Positions 7,216 to 24,950 of a stretch of 39,371 nucleotides of DNA are shown here, piece after piece. Under the pieces are notes generated by a model, which saw only the letters and a list, made by a program, of their open reading frames with translations, did no database searches and was not told where the DNA came from. Source of the DNA: Candidatus Dojkabacteria bacterium (lineage in GTDB: Bacteria; Patescibacteriota; Dojkabacteria; JAHIVN01); the NCBI GenBank assembly GCA_016932045.1, contig JAFGDO010000003.1, positions 76,115 to 115,485 on the forward strand. The letters are read 5' to 3'. The position numbers and the translations under genes are program-made. Positions within the stretch are counted from its first letter, which is position 1. Every line of letters starts with the position of its first letter.

Positions 7216-7274
7216 AAACGGAGCATAGTGACCATCTGTCCGCTTTTGTTTGAAAGTAGGAGTATTATTCAAAT

Positions 7275-7420
7275 TCGCCTGCACTGAGCTTGCAAGATGA
7301 GTTGATCGAATCTTATTGTGGTGGCCTGCCATGAGCGAATTCCGCTATGCGGGACGAGCCGAATGGAGTATTCCCCCACTACGCCTAAACTTCCCGAGTT
7401 CTGATTCCCAATATGCATTT
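7275..7420 (+). repeat. Dispersed ~150-bp element, copy A
   Basis: Near-identical to copy C from TCGAATCTTATTGTGGTGGCCTGCCATGAGCGAATTCCGCTATGCGGGACGAGCCGAATGGAGTATTCCCC onward. Confidence 0.85.
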
Positions 7421-7518
7421 AAGCTTAAAAAGTGAAAAAGGATAACTGAACAGTTTTTACTTCACCTACAAGACCATCACGTGTATAATTTACCTTAATA
7501 AGATGACACATTTCTTTC

Positions 7519-8629: not shown

Positions 8630-8754
8630 ACACTAGAATTCCGTTCTACAGTAAAACAACTAGATATAAAGACTTCATCCTGCTGAATAGAAGTACGAGG
8701 ATAATGGAAACAGTTGAGAATTTTAAGACCGTTGGCCTTAATTTCTCCAAATTT

Positions 8755-8915
8755 GCTTGCATTGAGATCTTGAGATGAATTGGTAAAACCTTGTCGAAGT
8801 GACCTGCCATGAGCGAGCTTCGAGTTTACGAGAAGCGAGTCGAATGGAATATTCCCCTACTACGCCTAAACTTCTCGAGTTCTAACGTCCAATATACTCT
8901 CGAGGAGAAAAAGTG
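8755..8915 (+). repeat. Dispersed ~150-bp element, copy B (divergent internal hairpin)
   Basis: Shares CCTGCCATGAGCGA...CGAATGGA.TATTCCCCTACTACGCCTAAACTTCTCGAGTTCT with A and C. Confidence 0.85.
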
Positions 8916-9001
8916 AAGATAGAAATTGGATAGTTGGAACTTTTTTACTTTTTCAATAATTATGTTATATTTTTATAAATATTAATTATAAAAAATTAAA
9001 C

Positions 9002-9937: not shown

Positions 9938-9962
9938 TCAGAATGGAGAATAGTGGATAAAG

Positions 9963-10115
9963 TCGCCTGCCATGAGCTCTTGAGATGAGCTAGTCGAATC
10001 TTATTGTGGTGGCCTGCCATGAGCGAATTCCGCTATGCGGGACGAGCCGAATGGAGTATTCCCCTACTACGCCTAAACTTCTCGAGTTCTGACATCCAAT
10101 ATACTCTTGCGGCAA
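9963..10115 (+). repeat. Dispersed ~150-bp element, copy C
   Basis: See copy A. Confidence 0.85.
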
Positions 10116-10200
10116 GAAATTGAGAATTGGCAATTGGATGGTTGGAACTTTCGTCCAAACCTGTTCCATTGTTTTAAGTTTATCTATAACTCTAAAACTC

Positions 10201-11261: not shown

Positions 11262-11330
11262 CTTCTCCCGCATTATCAAGTCACCGTGCTCGCACTGAGC
11301 GAGCATGAGCAAAGCGAATGCGAGTCGAAG

Positions 11331-11814
11331 TGGAGACGGTGGGAATCGAACCCACGTCCAAAAAGTGAACTCTGAAAATCTCTACAAGCTTATCCGCTTT
11401 AGCTTTTAACGATAAATAACATAAAAAACGGCAAAAACACTATTTACCGAGTTCATTTGGTATATGGCTCTAAAGGAAAGAACTATACCTTTAGAGTTGT
11501 ATCTTGACTAAGGTTCCGCCTAAGGTATCTCATCAAGAGAAAATACCATAGACCTATGCCATCCCGCTAAGCGGAATTAGGCATACGCAAAACTAAGCTT
11601 GGGAGCAAATACTTGCTCTGCAATAGCGTCAACTTTAGCCATGAGGCCGTTGAAACCATCCCTTAGCTTTGCTGAAAAGCTTTTAGCTTCGACGTTTATT
11701 CGTCATGCTGGTGTTGAATACCCAGCACTTGCAGTTTGATTAACGAATAACTGCTCGCGCAAAATTCGGCTTGCAATTTCAAAGAACTACTTCTTGTCAA
11801 AGCCGGTCGTCCCC
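11331..11814 (-). ncRNA. ssrA: tmRNA
   Basis: Minus strand begins GGGGACGACCGGCTTTGACA and ends GGACGTGGGTTCGATTCCCACCGTCTCCA; the acceptor ends pair (GGGGAC/GTCTCC) and CCA is encoded. Confidence 0.9.
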
Positions 11815-18441: not shown

Positions 18442-19671
18442 CTACTTCATCTCACGATTACTAGGCGACAAAAACAATCCAGCTAGTACAACTATACCAG
18501 CAAGAACAAAAAGCGTCAGGTCCATATCATAATCGGCAAACCAACCAAAGAGCGGATTTAGAATGGTCAATGCTAGACGCCTCACCATAGAAATAAATGA
18601 CAAGGTTGTAGCACGCTCACCGCTTTTAATGTGAATATTCAAGAATCCAGAGAAAATCTCTCTAAACTTTAATCCTATGCCCCCCGCAAGAATTACAAAT
18701 ACGAGAACCCCAATATTTGAATTTAAAAATATTGGTGCTAAGAAGCCTAGTACGATAAAAGCTGCACTTAGCCTTACCCAGAAGGACTTGTTTTTAGCTC
18801 CACTTATGACATTCACGAGTATATATGCTAGAACTATCTCACTTACAAGCAGAGCAATTCTATAAAAGCCGAAGTACTTCTCATCTACGTTTACCTCTTG
18901 CAGTAAAGTCTGGTAGAACCAGAGCACAAAGTAAGTTGAAGCAGTAATAAAAGTTACATAAACAACCAATTTCTTTAGTACATTATTCTTCTTAATTGTC
19001 TGCACTGCTCTTTTGAAAGTCGTCTTATAATCAGGGATAAATTCTTCCTTAGGTTTTATATTTGGCTCTTTTACGAACAACAGTATAAGTATAAATACCA
19101 AAGCTGAAGTAATGGCGCCAAGTTGAAATAACTGATTGACTTTAAAATATTCTATCAGTATACCGGAAAAAGCCGATGCAACAAGCATGCCAATCATGTG
19201 CAGATTAGATCTAAAAGTTTCTACTTTTCCGAAATCCTTTTCAACACCTGCCTGCTTCATAGTATCGTAAAGCAGAGCTTCTTCAGCACCAGAATTAAAA
19301 GCCACTCCAACGGCGAAGAGAAATTCTCCAAGCAGAAATACCCGAAAGTCCGGAAAACTACCATAAATAATTGGGCCTATGGTTAAGAATAAAAAGCCTG
19401 TTAGAACAGAGAATTTTCGTCCTTTGATATCACCAATAAGCCCTGTTGGAATCTCAAGCAAGAATATAAGCAGTGTAAACCAGCTTTGAAGCAACTGTGT
19501 CTGGAATTGGCTAAGCCCTCCCCAGTCCTTAAAAAAGGGAATTAGAAAAGCTCCAATGAATTCTATACCTGTGATGAATGAGGCGAGGCATAAGATATAT
19601 ACTTCTTTTGGATATTTTTTGAACAATTTCATGAAAATAAACGGATAATTTAAAGAGTCCAATTCTAGCAA
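18442..19671 (-). CDS. MFS transporter (start may be 19632)
   Basis: Multi-TM; IPTGLIGDIKGRKFSVLTG motif-A-like. Confidence 0.8.
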   Translation of the reverse strand: MLELDSLNYPFIFMKLFKKYPKEVYILCLASFITGIEFIGAFLIPFFKDWGGLSQFQTQLLQSWFTLLIFLLEIPTGLIGDIKGRKFSVLTGFLFLTIGPIIYGSFPDFRVFLLGEFLFAVGVAFNSGAEEALLYDTMKQAGVEKDFGKVETFRSNLHMIGMLVASAFSGILIEYFKVNQLFQLGAITSALVFILILLFVKEPNIKPKEEFIPDYKTTFKRAVQTIKKNNVLKKLVVYVTFITASTYFVLWFYQTLLQEVNVDEKYFGFYRIALLVSEIVLAYILVNVISGAKNKSFWVRLSAAFIVLGFLAPIFLNSNIGVLVFVILAGGIGLKFREIFSGFLNIHIKSGERATTLSFISMVRRLALTILNPLFGWFADYDMDLTLFVLAGIVVLAGLFLSPSNREMK

Positions 19672-19731
19672 GCAGCAAAACTTACGTACTAACGAGGTAA
19701 ACTAAGCGCCATTATAGCACGGCAGGTCAAG

Positions 19732-19913
19732 GGAATTTGCCTATCAGTCCCCCTGTACCAAGAAAGGTACAGGAGGATTTGGCCCATGAAATGGGCAATT
19801 CCACTACTCTACCCATCTGCACCTGAAAATGTACGCGAGGCAAAACCTCACGAACTAAAGGGTATGCCTTGGAATTGATAAAAGGTGCCCCCCGAACTTA
19901 ACGTAGTTCGGGG
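19732..19913 (-). ncRNA. Hairpin-rich structured region at the RT 3' end (candidate 3'UTR/ncRNA)
   Basis: Stems 19890-98/19905-13 (contains stop codon), 19834-40/19846-52, 19782-87/19791-96, 19749-59/19766-76; outer stem 19732-41/19794-802. Confidence 0.5.
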
Positions 19914-22396
19914 TTCTGATAAGCAATATTATTATACATCAAACCTTTAGCCCTTGAAATCCAAGAAACACAACTAACTAATCCCATCTTCTTTATAGTC
20001 GAGTGCGGAATCTTTCTCCTATCCTTTAGTCTCATTCTTTTTGTAATGCAGAGTCGAAGCCGATCTTCTATCCACATATCAATCTCCTTCAGCTCGTCAA
20101 AATCATTAACTCTACAAAAGTACTTACTCCAGCTTGTCTTCTTTCTTGTCGAGAAAAAGTAGTTAATCTGCTTTATTAGCCTCTCAATATCCTTACTACT
20201 TTCATAATTCTTTATATTAACTTCATGGAACTTTCTTTTCATTGTTAACCGTTTGATCTTCCTTTTTAGTTTATGAATTGTAAACTCAGAAAGTCCAATT
20301 CTCAACTCTTTGCCAATACTGAATCTGTATCCCAAGAAGCTAAATGTATCTCCAAACGAAACAAATTTTGTCTTTGAAGGTTTGAGCTTCAAGTCTAACT
20401 TTGACCCCTCATTCTCTATGAAACTTCTGGCCTCACCATCTTTAAAGGTTGCTTGGGAAATAACTATAAAGTCATCTGCATACCTCAGGTAATTATCAAG
20501 GCATTGTGAAACAGCTTCGTCAAATCCTTTCAAATAAACATTCAAGAGAAAATTTGTAATAGGCATTCCTTTTGGAAGAAATTCTACACTCGATAAGGAG
20601 CAAAAGAAGGCATCAAAGATATTGATTACTTTTGGATACTTATTCATAAGTTTATGTACTTTATTTTTAAGAATTTGCAGGTTAACACTCTGATGAAAAT
20701 TCTCAAAATCCGACCTGATTATCGTTCGTCCTTTTACGCATCTTAGAGTACGGATTAGTTGAGAAACCCCTTTAAATATAGAGCTCCCCTTTCTATAAGA
20801 GAAAACATTTTCAGAGAGTTTATCATCAAAAAAAGGCTGGATAATATTTATAATAGCTCTTTGAACTACTCTATCCGGGAAATTGCTTGTATAAACAAAA
20901 CGTTTTTCCTTTGTATCAAATCTTTTTATTTCCTTCTTTTTTGGAATGCTAAACTTATATTTCCCCTCGAGAAGTTCAGTATGCATTTCTTCTAGATTTC
21001 TTCTCCTATCAGCTAAGAATTCCTGAACCTCTTCATCATTCTCTAAATTCCTTCTACTCAGATAATATTCCAAGGCTTTTTCGAGATTAGTCATTGAGGA
21101 AATTCTATTTATCAAGGGTTTTGAATATTCTTGCCACCTTTCGTGCCAACCATAATATTCCCTCACTAAACTTTTCAAACCAAGATCCTTGAAGAACTCA
21201 TTTTTGAATTTTCGGTAATTTTTCTTACTCCAGCTTCCTGTTAGCTTTTGTCTAAGTTTTTCTCTAAGCCATATATCCAATTCTCTAAACTGTTTTGAGA
21301 AAGAAACCCTTGCAAAATATCTCGTCCAACCTTTCAGCCCTGTTCCACAAATAAGCCTATTTAAGTCTTCAATCAATTGGATAAGCTTTACCCTGCTCTT
21401 CTCATCTAGTGCCGCTGTATTTCTAATTTTTACCATCTTCCTTTTTCTGATAAGAAGTTTCACCTTTGTTTGAAACTTCTTAATTGATTTCTTCCGAATG
21501 TAAATGTTCCCGTCCCTGAATTCATACCCCAGATATTCAAAACCTTCGCCCGGTTTGATTAAATGAAGTTTATCTTCATTTATCTTTAAGGAATACTTCT
21601 TCAATTCTGAACGAATGAGACTCACTATCCCCTCTGCTTTTATCCTTTCCCTAACAATTATAAAAATGTCATCGGCATACCTCGCATAAAAAATCACTTT
21701 TTTCTGAACCAAACGATCAAACGGCATTAAGTAAATATTTGATAAAAGTGCAGCCAGGTGGCTTCCTATAGGTATTCCTTTCCTAGTTTGAGTAACACGT
21801 CCCTTCGATACTCTTTTTGCATTTATATAACTTACTATTATTTTTTTAAGACTCGAGTCACTACCCAAAAGTTCATCAATTTGAGATTCTAGAATTCTTC
21901 TATTTATCTGATTAAAATAATCTTCAACATCAAGTTTCACGGCTGAGAATTTTTTATCCTTGTGAAACTTATATACTTTTCGAACCAGCTGATGTACATT
22001 GTAATGAGATCCTCTGATTCTGCCGGAATACAGCCCCTTAGGAAAAACCGACTGCATTCTTTTATTCAGAATCTGATTAATTGCTATTTGGACAATTACA
22101 TCATGCAAGCAACCCTGGCAAAGGACAAGATACTTTTTGTGGTTTTTGGGTATTCGTCGCTCAAGAAATGGGGAAAATTTATACTTACCTCCTAACAATT
22201 CTTTACGAATCTTTATTAATCTTTGATCTCTCACCTTCAATAGGTCCTCAAACCTCTCTTTATCATATCCAACAGGGAACTTATCAACAAGATCTGAGTA
22301 ATATTTCTTCTTTAGTTTATTCACCGCCCGATTTAGATTCTTTGTCGAAAAGATCTGCTCCTCTAGCTTTTGTACTTTGGATAATTTCTTCAGCAT
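19898..22396 (-). CDS. Tandem dual reverse transcriptase, two group-II-intron-like RT/maturase modules in one polypeptide
   Basis: Module 1: SAVKLDVEDYF, GIPIGSHLAALLSNIYL, FYARYADDIFIIV, FEYLGYEF, GWTRYFARVS..LDIWLREKLR. Module 2: TIIRSDFENFH, GMPITNFLLNVYL, NYLRYADDFIVIS, FSFLGYRF, SWSKYFCRVN..IDMWIEDRLR. Confidence 0.92.
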   Translation of the reverse strand: MLKKLSKVQKLEEQIFSTKNLNRAVNKLKKKYYSDLVDKFPVGYDKERFEDLLKVRDQRLIKIRKELLGGKYKFSPFLERRIPKNHKKYLVLCQGCLHDVIVQIAINQILNKRMQSVFPKGLYSGRIRGSHYNVHQLVRKVYKFHKDKKFSAVKLDVEDYFNQINRRILESQIDELLGSDSSLKKIIVSYINAKRVSKGRVTQTRKGIPIGSHLAALLSNIYLMPFDRLVQKKVIFYARYADDIFIIVRERIKAEGIVSLIRSELKKYSLKINEDKLHLIKPGEGFEYLGYEFRDGNIYIRKKSIKKFQTKVKLLIRKRKMVKIRNTAALDEKSRVKLIQLIEDLNRLICGTGLKGWTRYFARVSFSKQFRELDIWLREKLRQKLTGSWSKKNYRKFKNEFFKDLGLKSLVREYYGWHERWQEYSKPLINRISSMTNLEKALEYYLSRRNLENDEEVQEFLADRRRNLEEMHTELLEGKYKFSIPKKKEIKRFDTKEKRFVYTSNFPDRVVQRAIINIIQPFFDDKLSENVFSYRKGSSIFKGVSQLIRTLRCVKGRTIIRSDFENFHQSVNLQILKNKVHKLMNKYPKVINIFDAFFCSLSSVEFLPKGMPITNFLLNVYLKGFDEAVSQCLDNYLRYADDFIVISQATFKDGEARSFIENEGSKLDLKLKPSKTKFVSFGDTFSFLGYRFSIGKELRIGLSEFTIHKLKRKIKRLTMKRKFHEVNIKNYESSKDIERLIKQINYFFSTRKKTSWSKYFCRVNDFDELKEIDMWIEDRLRLCITKRMRLKDRRKIPHSTIKKMGLVSCVSWISRAKGLMYNNIAYQNPELR

Positions 22397-22406
22397 TTAG
22401 AATTTG

Positions 22407-22424
22407 CCTGCCTGCGCAGGCAGG
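22407..22424. repeat. Perfect 18-nt palindrome just upstream of the RT start codon
   Basis: CCTGCCTGCGCAGGCAGG. Confidence 0.85.
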
Positions 22425-22458
22425 TTTGGATTTTGAATTTAGTATTTAGAGTTTTTTA

Positions 22459-22659
22459 TGAGACTACTTCTGTGCAAGCAACAAAAAATTATACTGACAG
22501 CGTCCATGCTCAAAGACTTCCCTACGGAACAAAGCCATCAGCTGAATCCAGTAAGCATCCCCCATTTGCTCTTGGCTCCGGAAGGCAAGCCCAAATAGTA
22601 AACGTTTTTGAAAGGCCTGCCTTCCGGAGCTTTAGCGAAGGAAGGTAGAAGTAGCCTCA
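22459..22659 (-). ncRNA. Candidate structured RNA preceding the RT gene
   Basis: 13-bp terminal stem TGAGGCTACTTCT/AGAAGTAGTCTCA (one G.U) enclosing an 18-bp hairpin 22575-92/22613-30 (two G.U) with a 20-nt loop. Confidence 0.5.
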
Positions 22660-22664
22660 ATCAA

Positions 22665-22694
22665 ATTCTATCACTTTGCAACACCAAAGGTAAA
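22665..22694 (-). promoter_or_regulatory. Putative sigma70-type promoter for the candidate RNA/RT transcript
   Basis: Minus strand TTTACC - 18 nt - TAGAAT; predicted start at ~22658, the 5' edge of the terminal stem. Confidence 0.45.
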
Positions 22695-22870
22695 AGGCAC
22701 AAGGTAAAGAGTAAGAGGTATGAAGTAGTAATTTAGCTATCTAGCTATCCCCACCCAAGGTGGACTAGCAACCATCCGATAATACAACATTACAACAATG
22801 AATTAATTATCCGATTGAAAATTAAAAATGAAGAATGAAAAATGAACGATAAAACAAAATAACAATATAA

Positions 22871-23752
22871 CTATTTCCCTAAATTATAAAACTCCATCGC
22901 ATTCCTCTTCGTAACCTCAGCAACTTCACTAGTTTCAACACTTACAATCTCGGCCATTTTGTTAACAACATATCGCACATCGGCAGGTTCACATACCTGC
23001 CCTCGTATCTTTTGCGGTGCGCAATAAGGAGCATCTGTTTCGGCTAGGACCTGATCTCTATATCTGTTCCACCCGAGTTCAAATATTTCCCGAATATTTC
23101 CCGCATTTGGATATGTAAGAATTCCATTAAACGAGATATGATACCCAGCTTCAAAAACGTTTTTAGCCACTCGCTTTTCTCCTGTGAAACAATGGAACAG
23201 AGCTTTCAGCCTACAGCCTTCGGCCTTCAGCTTAGCATTTATTTCATCAAGTACTTCCCTTTCAGCCCCTCTGCTATGCACTACAAGTGGTAATCTCGAT
23301 TCATTTGCCAACTCAATCTGCTTTTCGAATAAAGTAACTTGCAACTTCTTAATCTCATTTTTTTTCTTCGAACTGAGCTGTAAGCTGTTAGCTGCTAGCT
23401 GTTCGCTTTTATCAATCCAATAATAGTCCAGCCCGCACTCCCCTATCGCACCGATACTCTCTTTATTATCAGAACATATTTGCCTTAATTCCTTTATCCA
23501 TCCATCTATATCTGCTTTTTTCTTATAAATATCTGATCCGGGAATTAAAAGTTCTGGGTGTAATCCAATTGTCGGGATAATGAACTCAGGATACCGTGAA
23601 GAAAACTTTAGAACTGCCCTTGAAGTCTCGATATCTACGGAAGCATCGACAGTTTTCACAACATTAGCTTCTATAGCTCTTTGAATTACTTCTCGAATAT
23701 CCTTGTACTTCTTTGGAGAAGAAGCAATATGTGCATGGGAATCAAAATACAT
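22871..23752 (-). CDS. tatD: TatD family metal-dependent hydrolase
   Basis: MYFDSHAHIA, GECGLDYYW, VVHSRGA, LFHCFTG, AETDAPYCAP. Confidence 0.9.
   Translation of the reverse strand: MYFDSHAHIASSPKKYKDIREVIQRAIEANVVKTVDASVDIETSRAVLKFSSRYPEFIIPTIGLHPELLIPGSDIYKKKADIDGWIKELRQICSDNKESIGAIGECGLDYYWIDKSEQLAANSLQLSSKKKNEIKKLQVTLFEKQIELANESRLPLVVHSRGAEREVLDEINAKLKAEGCRLKALFHCFTGEKRVAKNVFEAGYHISFNGILTYPNAGNIREIFELGWNRYRDQVLAETDAPYCAPQKIRGQVCEPADVRYVVNKMAEIVSVETSEVAEVTKRNAMEFYNLGK
23376..23403. repeat. Four tandem 7-mers AGCTGTA/AGCTGTT/AGCTGCT/AGCTGTT inside the tatD CDS
   Basis: Direct reading. Confidence 0.8.
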
Positions 23753-23756
23753 AAAT

Positions 23757-24950
23757 CTAAAGAGTAACTAATCTGGAGTTAAATATTCTTTTTAATTTGT
23801 CGAAGATCCTGTTAACGAGAGCTTTTTTTGCCTTATCATGAACCTCCCTGTATGTTTTGATCGTCTCTTCATATATTGCTACAGTTTTTTTGGAAGTTTC
23901 AACAACATCAAACTTCCTAGACCTTTTGATAGCTTCTTTTGACATACCTTTGTAGAGTGCCAAATTACCTGTTACTTTCTGAACCGCCTCAGAGAATAAA
24001 CGCGCATTCGCTCTTTTCATTATTAAGCCCGTTTTACCATTCTTAACTGCATGCAGACTTCCAAGATTCCTGAGGGTAATAATTGGTAAAGCAGCCGCCA
24101 TCGCTTCTACATAAACTAACGGTTGAGCCTCAATAGAAGAAGGCAACGTAAATATATCGGCGTCTCGATAATACTTGTGAATCTCTTCGTGAGGTACTCT
24201 TCCTATAAAGTCAACATTTTCAATTCCTAGTCTTTTTGCAAGTTTCTTCACATGATTGTCTTCTCCGCCTTCCCCAATAAGTAGAAGTTTATATTCGTTT
24301 TTATCTAAATACCTCATCATATCAACGAGAAGTTTCACATTCTTTCTTTTATCAGCCGAGGAAACACATAGTATCTTACAGGGTTTTGAAATTTTAGTTC
24401 TTGGCTTGTATAGGAATTGCTCCAAATCTGTCCCTGTCGGCTGGACCACCACCCTTGGCTTTATCTTTTCTCTCTTCAAATATTCTTCAATATTCTTATT
24501 CAGAGCTATCACAACATCACAAAGGTTAATGTATAGTTTAATCCACCTCATAACAATAGGTGCCATAAAATAACGAAGATACCAGGGGAAAACCGACTTC
24601 AAAAATGCCCTAAATTCATTATGAGCTGTATAAACAATCGGTATATTCTTTTCAAATGCATATTTTATTCCAGCTAGACAAACAAGATCTGCCCCATGAG
24701 AATGAACAATATCTGGCTTGAATTTATCTATCTCCTTAAAGACTGTTGGGTCAATGATATCGGGAAGTGCCCACACCCCAAGTGGACTTCTGTAAGAATA
24801 TGGCGTTTCACGTTCCTCTCCTTGCGATGAAGGACACACAAGAATAACTTTATGACCTAACTTTTCAAGTCCTCTTCTTAAGTTATCCGCAGCTATGTAA
24901 TAACCTGTTAATCTCTTCTTTGTTACACCAACAAAAAGTACTACTCGCAT
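23757..24950 (-). CDS. Glycosyltransferase family 4-like
   Basis: IVHSHGADLVCLAG, ILCVSSADKRKNVKLLVDMM, LPSSIEAQPLVYVEAMAAALPII. Confidence 0.85.
   Translation of the reverse strand: MRVVLFVGVTKKRLTGYYIAADNLRRGLEKLGHKVILVCPSSQGEERETPYSYRSPLGVWALPDIIDPTVFKEIDKFKPDIVHSHGADLVCLAGIKYAFEKNIPIVYTAHNEFRAFLKSVFPWYLRYFMAPIVMRWIKLYINLCDVVIALNKNIEEYLKREKIKPRVVVQPTGTDLEQFLYKPRTKISKPCKILCVSSADKRKNVKLLVDMMRYLDKNEYKLLLIGEGGEDNHVKKLAKRLGIENVDFIGRVPHEEIHKYYRDADIFTLPSSIEAQPLVYVEAMAAALPIITLRNLGSLHAVKNGKTGLIMKRANARLFSEAVQKVTGNLALYKGMSKEAIKRSRKFDVVETSKKTVAIYEETIKTYREVHDKAKKALVNRIFDKLKRIFNSRLVTL

What the first reader, a model, noticed from the sequence alone, without database searches (positions are those of the whole stretch)
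19898..22396. Tandem dual reverse transcriptase: two complete group-II-intron-like RT modules in one 832-aa protein
Seen directly: residues ~1-420 and ~430-832 each carry an RT palm with a motif-A Asp (D156; D563) and YADD (21668..21679; 20471..20482), then a FEYLGYEF/FSFLGYRF segment and a maturase-like WxxYF...LDxWxxxxLR region. Both catalytic centres look intact. The motif-4 positions differ from the usual PQG: GIPIG in module 1 and GMPIT in module 2. No HNH endonuclease Cys motif is visible. Known group II intron proteins have one RT. DRT3-type defence systems use two separate RT proteins plus an ncRNA, so a fused pair with GIIM-like regions in a CPR-like genome could be a new architecture with divided labour between two polymerases.
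Basis: partly seen in the sequence, partly recalled or inferred. Interest (0 to 1): 0.92.

Follow-up and report, generated by a model that had tools for sequence, protein, structure and literature searches.

The report
Tandem two-headed bacterial reverse transcriptase
A small bacterium, probably of the CPR/Patescibacteria type, carries one gene for a protein made of two complete, divergent copies of a group-II-intron-type reverse transcriptase joined end to end, without the intron such enzymes usually come with; I found no second example, and its job is still unknown.

Summary
Window 19898-22396 (-) is one uninterrupted 832-aa ORF with two complete RT modules, M1 (aa 1-422) and M2 (aa 423-832). 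Both match RVT_1 and GIIM-type thumbs, have both catalytic Asp sites, and fold like group II intron RTs (predicted models; M2 Z 32.5 to GsI-IIC RT).

One detail is corrected. The motif-4 triplets are PIG in M1 and PKG in M2. 'GMPIT' is not a replacement of PQG, and PKG also occurs in an ordinary group II RT.

M1 and M2 are 28% identical. M2's best match is M1, which fits an old internal duplication, but the trees are weak. No intron RNA (Rfam), DGR repeats, cas genes or effector were found. The nearest named profile is UG26, but true UG26 RTs are single, score three times higher and carry MAG/YSDD. No fused homologue appeared in about 480 related genomes, nor in viral, phage or plasmid searches.

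Upstream lies a 474-nt gap with a 199-nt hairpin-rich element, a candidate template RNA supported by weak evidence only.

I read it as a domesticated, free-standing RT working as a covalent dimer, perhaps RNA-templated and antiviral. The architecture is well supported; divided labour and defence are inference. Interest 0.6.

The parts
19898..22396 (-). 832-aa tandem reverse transcriptase ORF, ATG start, stop codon included
21131..22396 (-). Module 1 (aa 1-422): RT fingers/palm, D156, Y160 (steric-gate position), PIG motif 4 (aa 209-211), YADD 240-243, GIIM-like thumb, C-terminal K-LG-SLV stretch
19901..21130 (-). Module 2 (aa 423-832): RT fingers/palm, D563, F567 (steric-gate position), PKG motif 4 (aa 608-610), YADD 639-642, thumb and D-like C-terminus
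21668..21679 (-). YADD of module 1
20471..20482 (-). YADD of module 2
22397..22870 (-). 474-nt upstream gap; one of three intergenic regions of the window (with the other flank of this gene and the tmRNA region) that fold clearly better than shuffles
22460..22658 (-). Candidate structured RNA (199 nt) bounded by 12-13 bp arms (GAGGCTACTTCT / AGAAGTAGTCTC). z -5.7; only -1.9 without its GC hairpin, so weak evidence
22574..22630 (-). 18-bp GC-rich hairpin inside the candidate RNA
22665..22694 (-). Promoter-like site (TTTACC-18-TAGAAT, extended -10) placed so that transcription would start at the first base of the element; the scan finds no more sites than chance
19672..19897 (-). Downstream gap, also well folded (several hairpins); terminator or leader of the next gene, or part of the system

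Best explanation
A free-standing (domesticated) reverse transcriptase that arose by tandem duplication of a group-II-intron-like RT gene after, or together with, loss of the intron. The two modules stay joined and probably act as a built-in dimer. Both are predicted to make DNA: both have the catalytic Asp residues and an aromatic residue at the steric-gate position. The protein most likely copies an RNA encoded just upstream (22460-22658), and the cDNA or the polymerase complex serves a cellular purpose, with antiviral defence the first guess. Shown by computation: one ORF, two complete predicted RT folds, no recognisable intron RNA, no fused relative found. Inferred: duplication, dimer-like action, RNA template, defence.
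For: Two full RVT_1/GIIM modules. M2 fold model pLDDT 87.5, Z 32.5 over 378 residues to GsI-IIC RT; M1 Z 27.9. M2's best match is M1 (108 bits; next 77), while M1 scores M2 about equal to a group II RT (108 vs 111). No Rfam intron match up to E 5 in 19600-22950. Single copy in its genome. Nearest named profile for both halves is UG26, filed as DRT in PADLOC (176 and 153 bits). The upstream gap folds better than shuffles while most other gaps of the window do not. A well-studied domesticated group-II-like RT, G2L4, works as a dimer (PMC12337344). DRT2, DRT9 and DRT10 pair an RT with a non-coding RNA (PMC12596737; PMC12632851).
Against: Neighbours are housekeeping genes (MetRS, glycosyltransferase, TatD, MFS), not defence genes. 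The RNA signal rests mostly on one hairpin and no relative exists to test covariation. The M1-M2 sister relation has weak support (59/29) and depends on rows and alignment. No experiment and no second genome.
Confidence: 0.4

Rival explanations
1. A domesticated group-II-like RT for DNA repair, as reported for G2L4: a covalent dimer in which one module extends a DNA end while the other stabilises, with no dedicated RNA.
For: Full group-II-type fold with thumb, chromosomal single copy among housekeeping genes, no convincing RNA partner. G2L4 RT is dimeric and repairs double-strand breaks (PMC12337344).
Against: Neither half has the YIDD that marks G2L4 (PMC4244168). Sequence match to G2L4 is weak (E 1e-4 for M1, 4.7e-5 for M2).
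Confidence: 0.25
2. A fused two-polymerase antiviral system of DRT3 type: one module RNA-templated, the other using another mode, together making double-stranded DNA.
For: DRT3 uses two RTs, one RNA-templated and one protein-templated (PMC13174585). M1 and M2 differ at motif 4 (PIG vs PKG).
Against: Drt3a model scores 150.5 bits over both halves, cut-off 200. PKG occurs in an ordinary group II RT (L188), so it does not mark a special mode. No defence context.
Confidence: 0.15
3. A dying retroelement: a duplicated group II intron protein whose RNA has decayed.
For: Closest solved relatives by sequence are group II RTs; no intron RNA left.
Against: Both modules keep intact motifs after divergence to 28% identity, which needs long selection; only one copy in the genome.
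Confidence: 0.1
4. An assembly artefact joining two neighbouring RT genes.
For: Only one genome holds it; draft genome of 32 contigs, 3% contamination.
Against: In-frame join at a domain border, one continuous ORF. No single-gene relative close to either half was found in the sampled relatives.
Confidence: 0.07

Closest known systems
Group II intron-encoded RT/maturase (e.g. GsI-IIC RT, PDB 6AR1; E. rectale, 7UIM)
   Same: RT core, thumb and overall fold over the whole of each module; no endonuclease domain found
   Different: Two modules in one chain, no intron RNA found, M1 has PIG instead of PQG, best identity about 30%
UG26 RT (PADLOC PDLC03764; members L156 Lachnospiraceae, L159)
   Same: Best PADLOC profile for both halves; shared C-terminal K-LG-S-V stretch
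   Different: The UG26 members seen are single 421-425 aa proteins scoring 549 and 463 bits with MAG and YSDD; M1/M2 score 176/153 with PIG/PKG and YADD
DRT3 (Drt3a + Drt3b + ncRNA)
   Same: Two RT activities in one locus
   Different: Two separate proteins there, one chain here; Drt3a model below cut-off
G2L4 RT
   Same: Domesticated group-II-like RT, similar fold (Z 22-30)
   Different: G2L4 has YIDD and is a homodimer of single RTs; here YADD twice in one chain
DGR RT (Bordetella BPP-1 and examples from the window's phylum)
   Same: PIG at motif 4 of M1
   Different: No template/variable repeat found near the gene; DGR RTs compared are single and shorter

Membership tests
Group II intron protein | RT plus maturase (thumb) domain | tested here: met
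   RVT_1 and GIIM in M1, GIIM marginal in M2; full-length fold matches
Group II intron protein | Encoded inside a group II intron RNA | tested here: not met
   No Rfam match at gathering level or up to E 5; a highly degenerate intron could be missed
Group II intron protein | NCBIfam TIGR04416 cut-off of 300 bits | tested here: not met
   280.1 bits summed over two halves
UG26 | Profile score like known members | tested here: not met
   176 and 153 bits against 549 and 463 for members
UG26 | MAG motif 4 and YSDD, as in the two members seen | tested here: not met
   PIG/PKG and YADD; only two members compared
DRT3 | Separate Drt3a and Drt3b with ncRNA | tested here: not met
   One chain; Drt3a 150.5 bits, cut-off 200
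DRT (any) | RT-dependent phage defence | not testable with these tools
   Needs plaque assays
DGR | Template and variable repeats near the RT | tested here: not met
   No such repeat near the gene in the window; repeats elsewhere in the genome not searched
G2L4 | YIDD | tested here: not met
   YADD twice
CRISPR-associated RT | cas1/cas2 nearby | tested here: not met
   No Cas family among the window proteins scanned, which are not all of them; no array found
Retron | msr-msd RNA | not testable with these tools
   Upstream element is bounded by inverted repeats, as msr-msd is, but no sequence family matches

The most novel reading that the evidence does not exclude
The first single-chain system with two working reverse transcriptase centres that share one upstream template RNA, for example one module making the first strand and the other the second, in a CPR-type bacterium.
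Probability: 0.2. Interest if true: 0.9.

Novelty: new variant of a known kind. Interest (0 to 1): 0.6.

Why it matters
As far as I know, described bacterial RTs have one RT core per chain; a term search of held open papers found no bacterial RT protein with two. Two-RT immunity is so far known from separate proteins (DRT3). A fused pair with both active sites intact gives a simple, testable way to ask whether two RT centres share work, and it suggests that CPR-type genomes hold RT designs outside the present classes.

Tried and rejected
Fused homologues: viral-contig scans with P0001, each half, M1+M2, motif-focused and UG26-including alignments, the one genome-contig scan (its exact 8-residue patterns are insensitive), phages and plasmids by tblastn: none. 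The alignment used synthetic rows of mine only to steer pattern choice. A 2.3-kb phage-record match (L199) proved to be two separate neighbouring ORFs. I first took M2's motif 4 for a 4-residue deletion because MAFFT misaligned it; HMMER and L-INS-i alignments show normal spacing. The 13-bp arm of the RNA candidate alone is not significant (31 of 100 shuffles have one as long). Full-length fold: M2 part unreliable there for lack of aligned rows, so M2 was folded alone. The 2022 UG/Abi survey was not held, so UG26's published context could not be read. Telomerase and DRT10 do not appear in the structure lists shown, which excludes nothing.

Full report
What is there. Window 19898-22396 on the minus strand is one ATG-to-stop ORF of 832 aa. 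Pfam finds the reverse transcriptase domain twice, and the group II maturase (thumb) domain in both halves, marginal in the second. The two modules align over 374 aa at 28% identity, E 6e-34. Both modules keep the motif-A Asp, YADD, and an aromatic residue at the steric-gate position (Y160, F567); the meaning of the gate position is from general RT knowledge.

Fold. With viral relatives as alignment, module 1 is predicted well inside the full-length model and matches GsI-IIC group II RT (Z 27.9) and the DGR RT (Z 27.8); module 2 in that model is poor because no rows covered it. Folded alone, module 2 reaches pLDDT 87.5 and matches GsI-IIC RT over 378 residues, rmsd 2.9, Z 32.5, thumb and C-terminal part included. 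So both halves are complete RTs of the group II type by prediction. Nothing reliable can be said about how they pack against each other.

Correction to the finding. In standard register the triplet equivalent to PQG is PIG (209-211) in module 1 and PKG (608-610) in module 2. PKG also occurs in an annotated group II RT (L188), and PIG occurs in DGR RTs. Module 2 therefore has an ordinary motif 4.

Which family. The best PADLOC profile for both halves is RT_UG26 (176 and 153 bits). A genuine UG26 RT from a Lachnospiraceae MAG (L156) scores 549 and another (L159) 463; they are single proteins of 421-425 aa with MAG and YSDD. Two group II-type RTs score 113 and 131 on the same profile. The modules thus lie near UG26 and group II RTs but belong to neither by the tests made. 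Module 2's best match is module 1; module 1 scores module 2 and a group II RT about equally. A better-aligned tree pairs M1 with M2 (59/29); an earlier one did not, but did not reject it either (p-AU 0.44). Tandem duplication is the simplest reading and is not proven.

How rare. P0001 was searched in the window's genome and relatives (overlapping sets, about 480 different genomes by handle count). Other matching RTs there are single proteins, most of those inspected being DGR RTs. No fused protein appeared in viral contigs, phages or plasmids either. The sets are a sample and the pattern-based scans are insensitive, so the absence speaks only for what was searched.

Surroundings. Downstream on the same strand is an MFS transporter, upstream a TatD DNase, a glycosyltransferase and MetRS. 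In two relatives of the same family MetRS and TatD are adjacent and in the same order, without the glycosyltransferase, and the MFS homologue lies on another contig. The contigs end at or soon after TatD, so an empty RT site could not be seen. The locus looks chromosomal and not like a defence island.

RNA. No Rfam family other than tmRNA reaches its threshold in the window, and no intron family matches up to E 5 around the gene. The 474-nt gap before the gene folds better than shuffles (z -4.45); of the 16 gaps tested, only the two flanking this gene and the tmRNA region stand out. The signal sits in a 199-nt element with pairing arms (z -5.7), but falls to -1.9 without its 18-bp GC hairpin, and to -0.96 for the whole gap without it. 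A promoter-like site would start transcription at the element's first base, but such sites are no more frequent than chance. This is a candidate only.

Function. I think it most likely that a group-II-type RT was domesticated, duplicated and kept as a covalent dimer that copies a dedicated RNA, perhaps for antiviral defence (0.4). DNA repair like G2L4 is the main rival (0.25), then a fused DRT3-like division of labour (0.15), a decaying retroelement (0.1) and an assembly artefact (0.07). None of these functions was tested.

Noticed in passing
L195 4675-572 (-) and L196 9837-13360 (+): Divergent single RT-like proteins with VGDD in place of YxDD, each followed by a multi-helix/ABC-type membrane protein (578 / 477 aa) and a protein that looks like phospholipase D (388 / 371 aa): the same three-gene order in two families of the phylum. 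RVT_1 was confirmed for the L195 RT; the other two names are from reading the sequence.
   Followed up: partly
window 7265-7462, 8743-8916, 9953-10150: Three copies of a roughly 190-nt intergenic repeat (73-88% alike) between a methyltransferase gene and two genes of unknown or weakly matched family.
   Followed up: no
L200 4158-5831 (+): 558-aa RT in a 199-kb viral contig with a UG26-like C-terminal motif (TMGYKSL) and motif 4 RQGNALG.
   Followed up: no
L199 742-2238 and 2392-3738 (+): A group II RT ORF (449 aa) directly preceded by a second ORF (499 aa) with weak RT similarity, in an unverified phage record.
   Followed up: partly
window 11330-11814: tmRNA gene with tag APKLSFAYA.
   Followed up: no
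window 23757-24950: Glycosyltransferase gene between MetRS and TatD, which are adjacent in two family relatives.
   Followed up: partly
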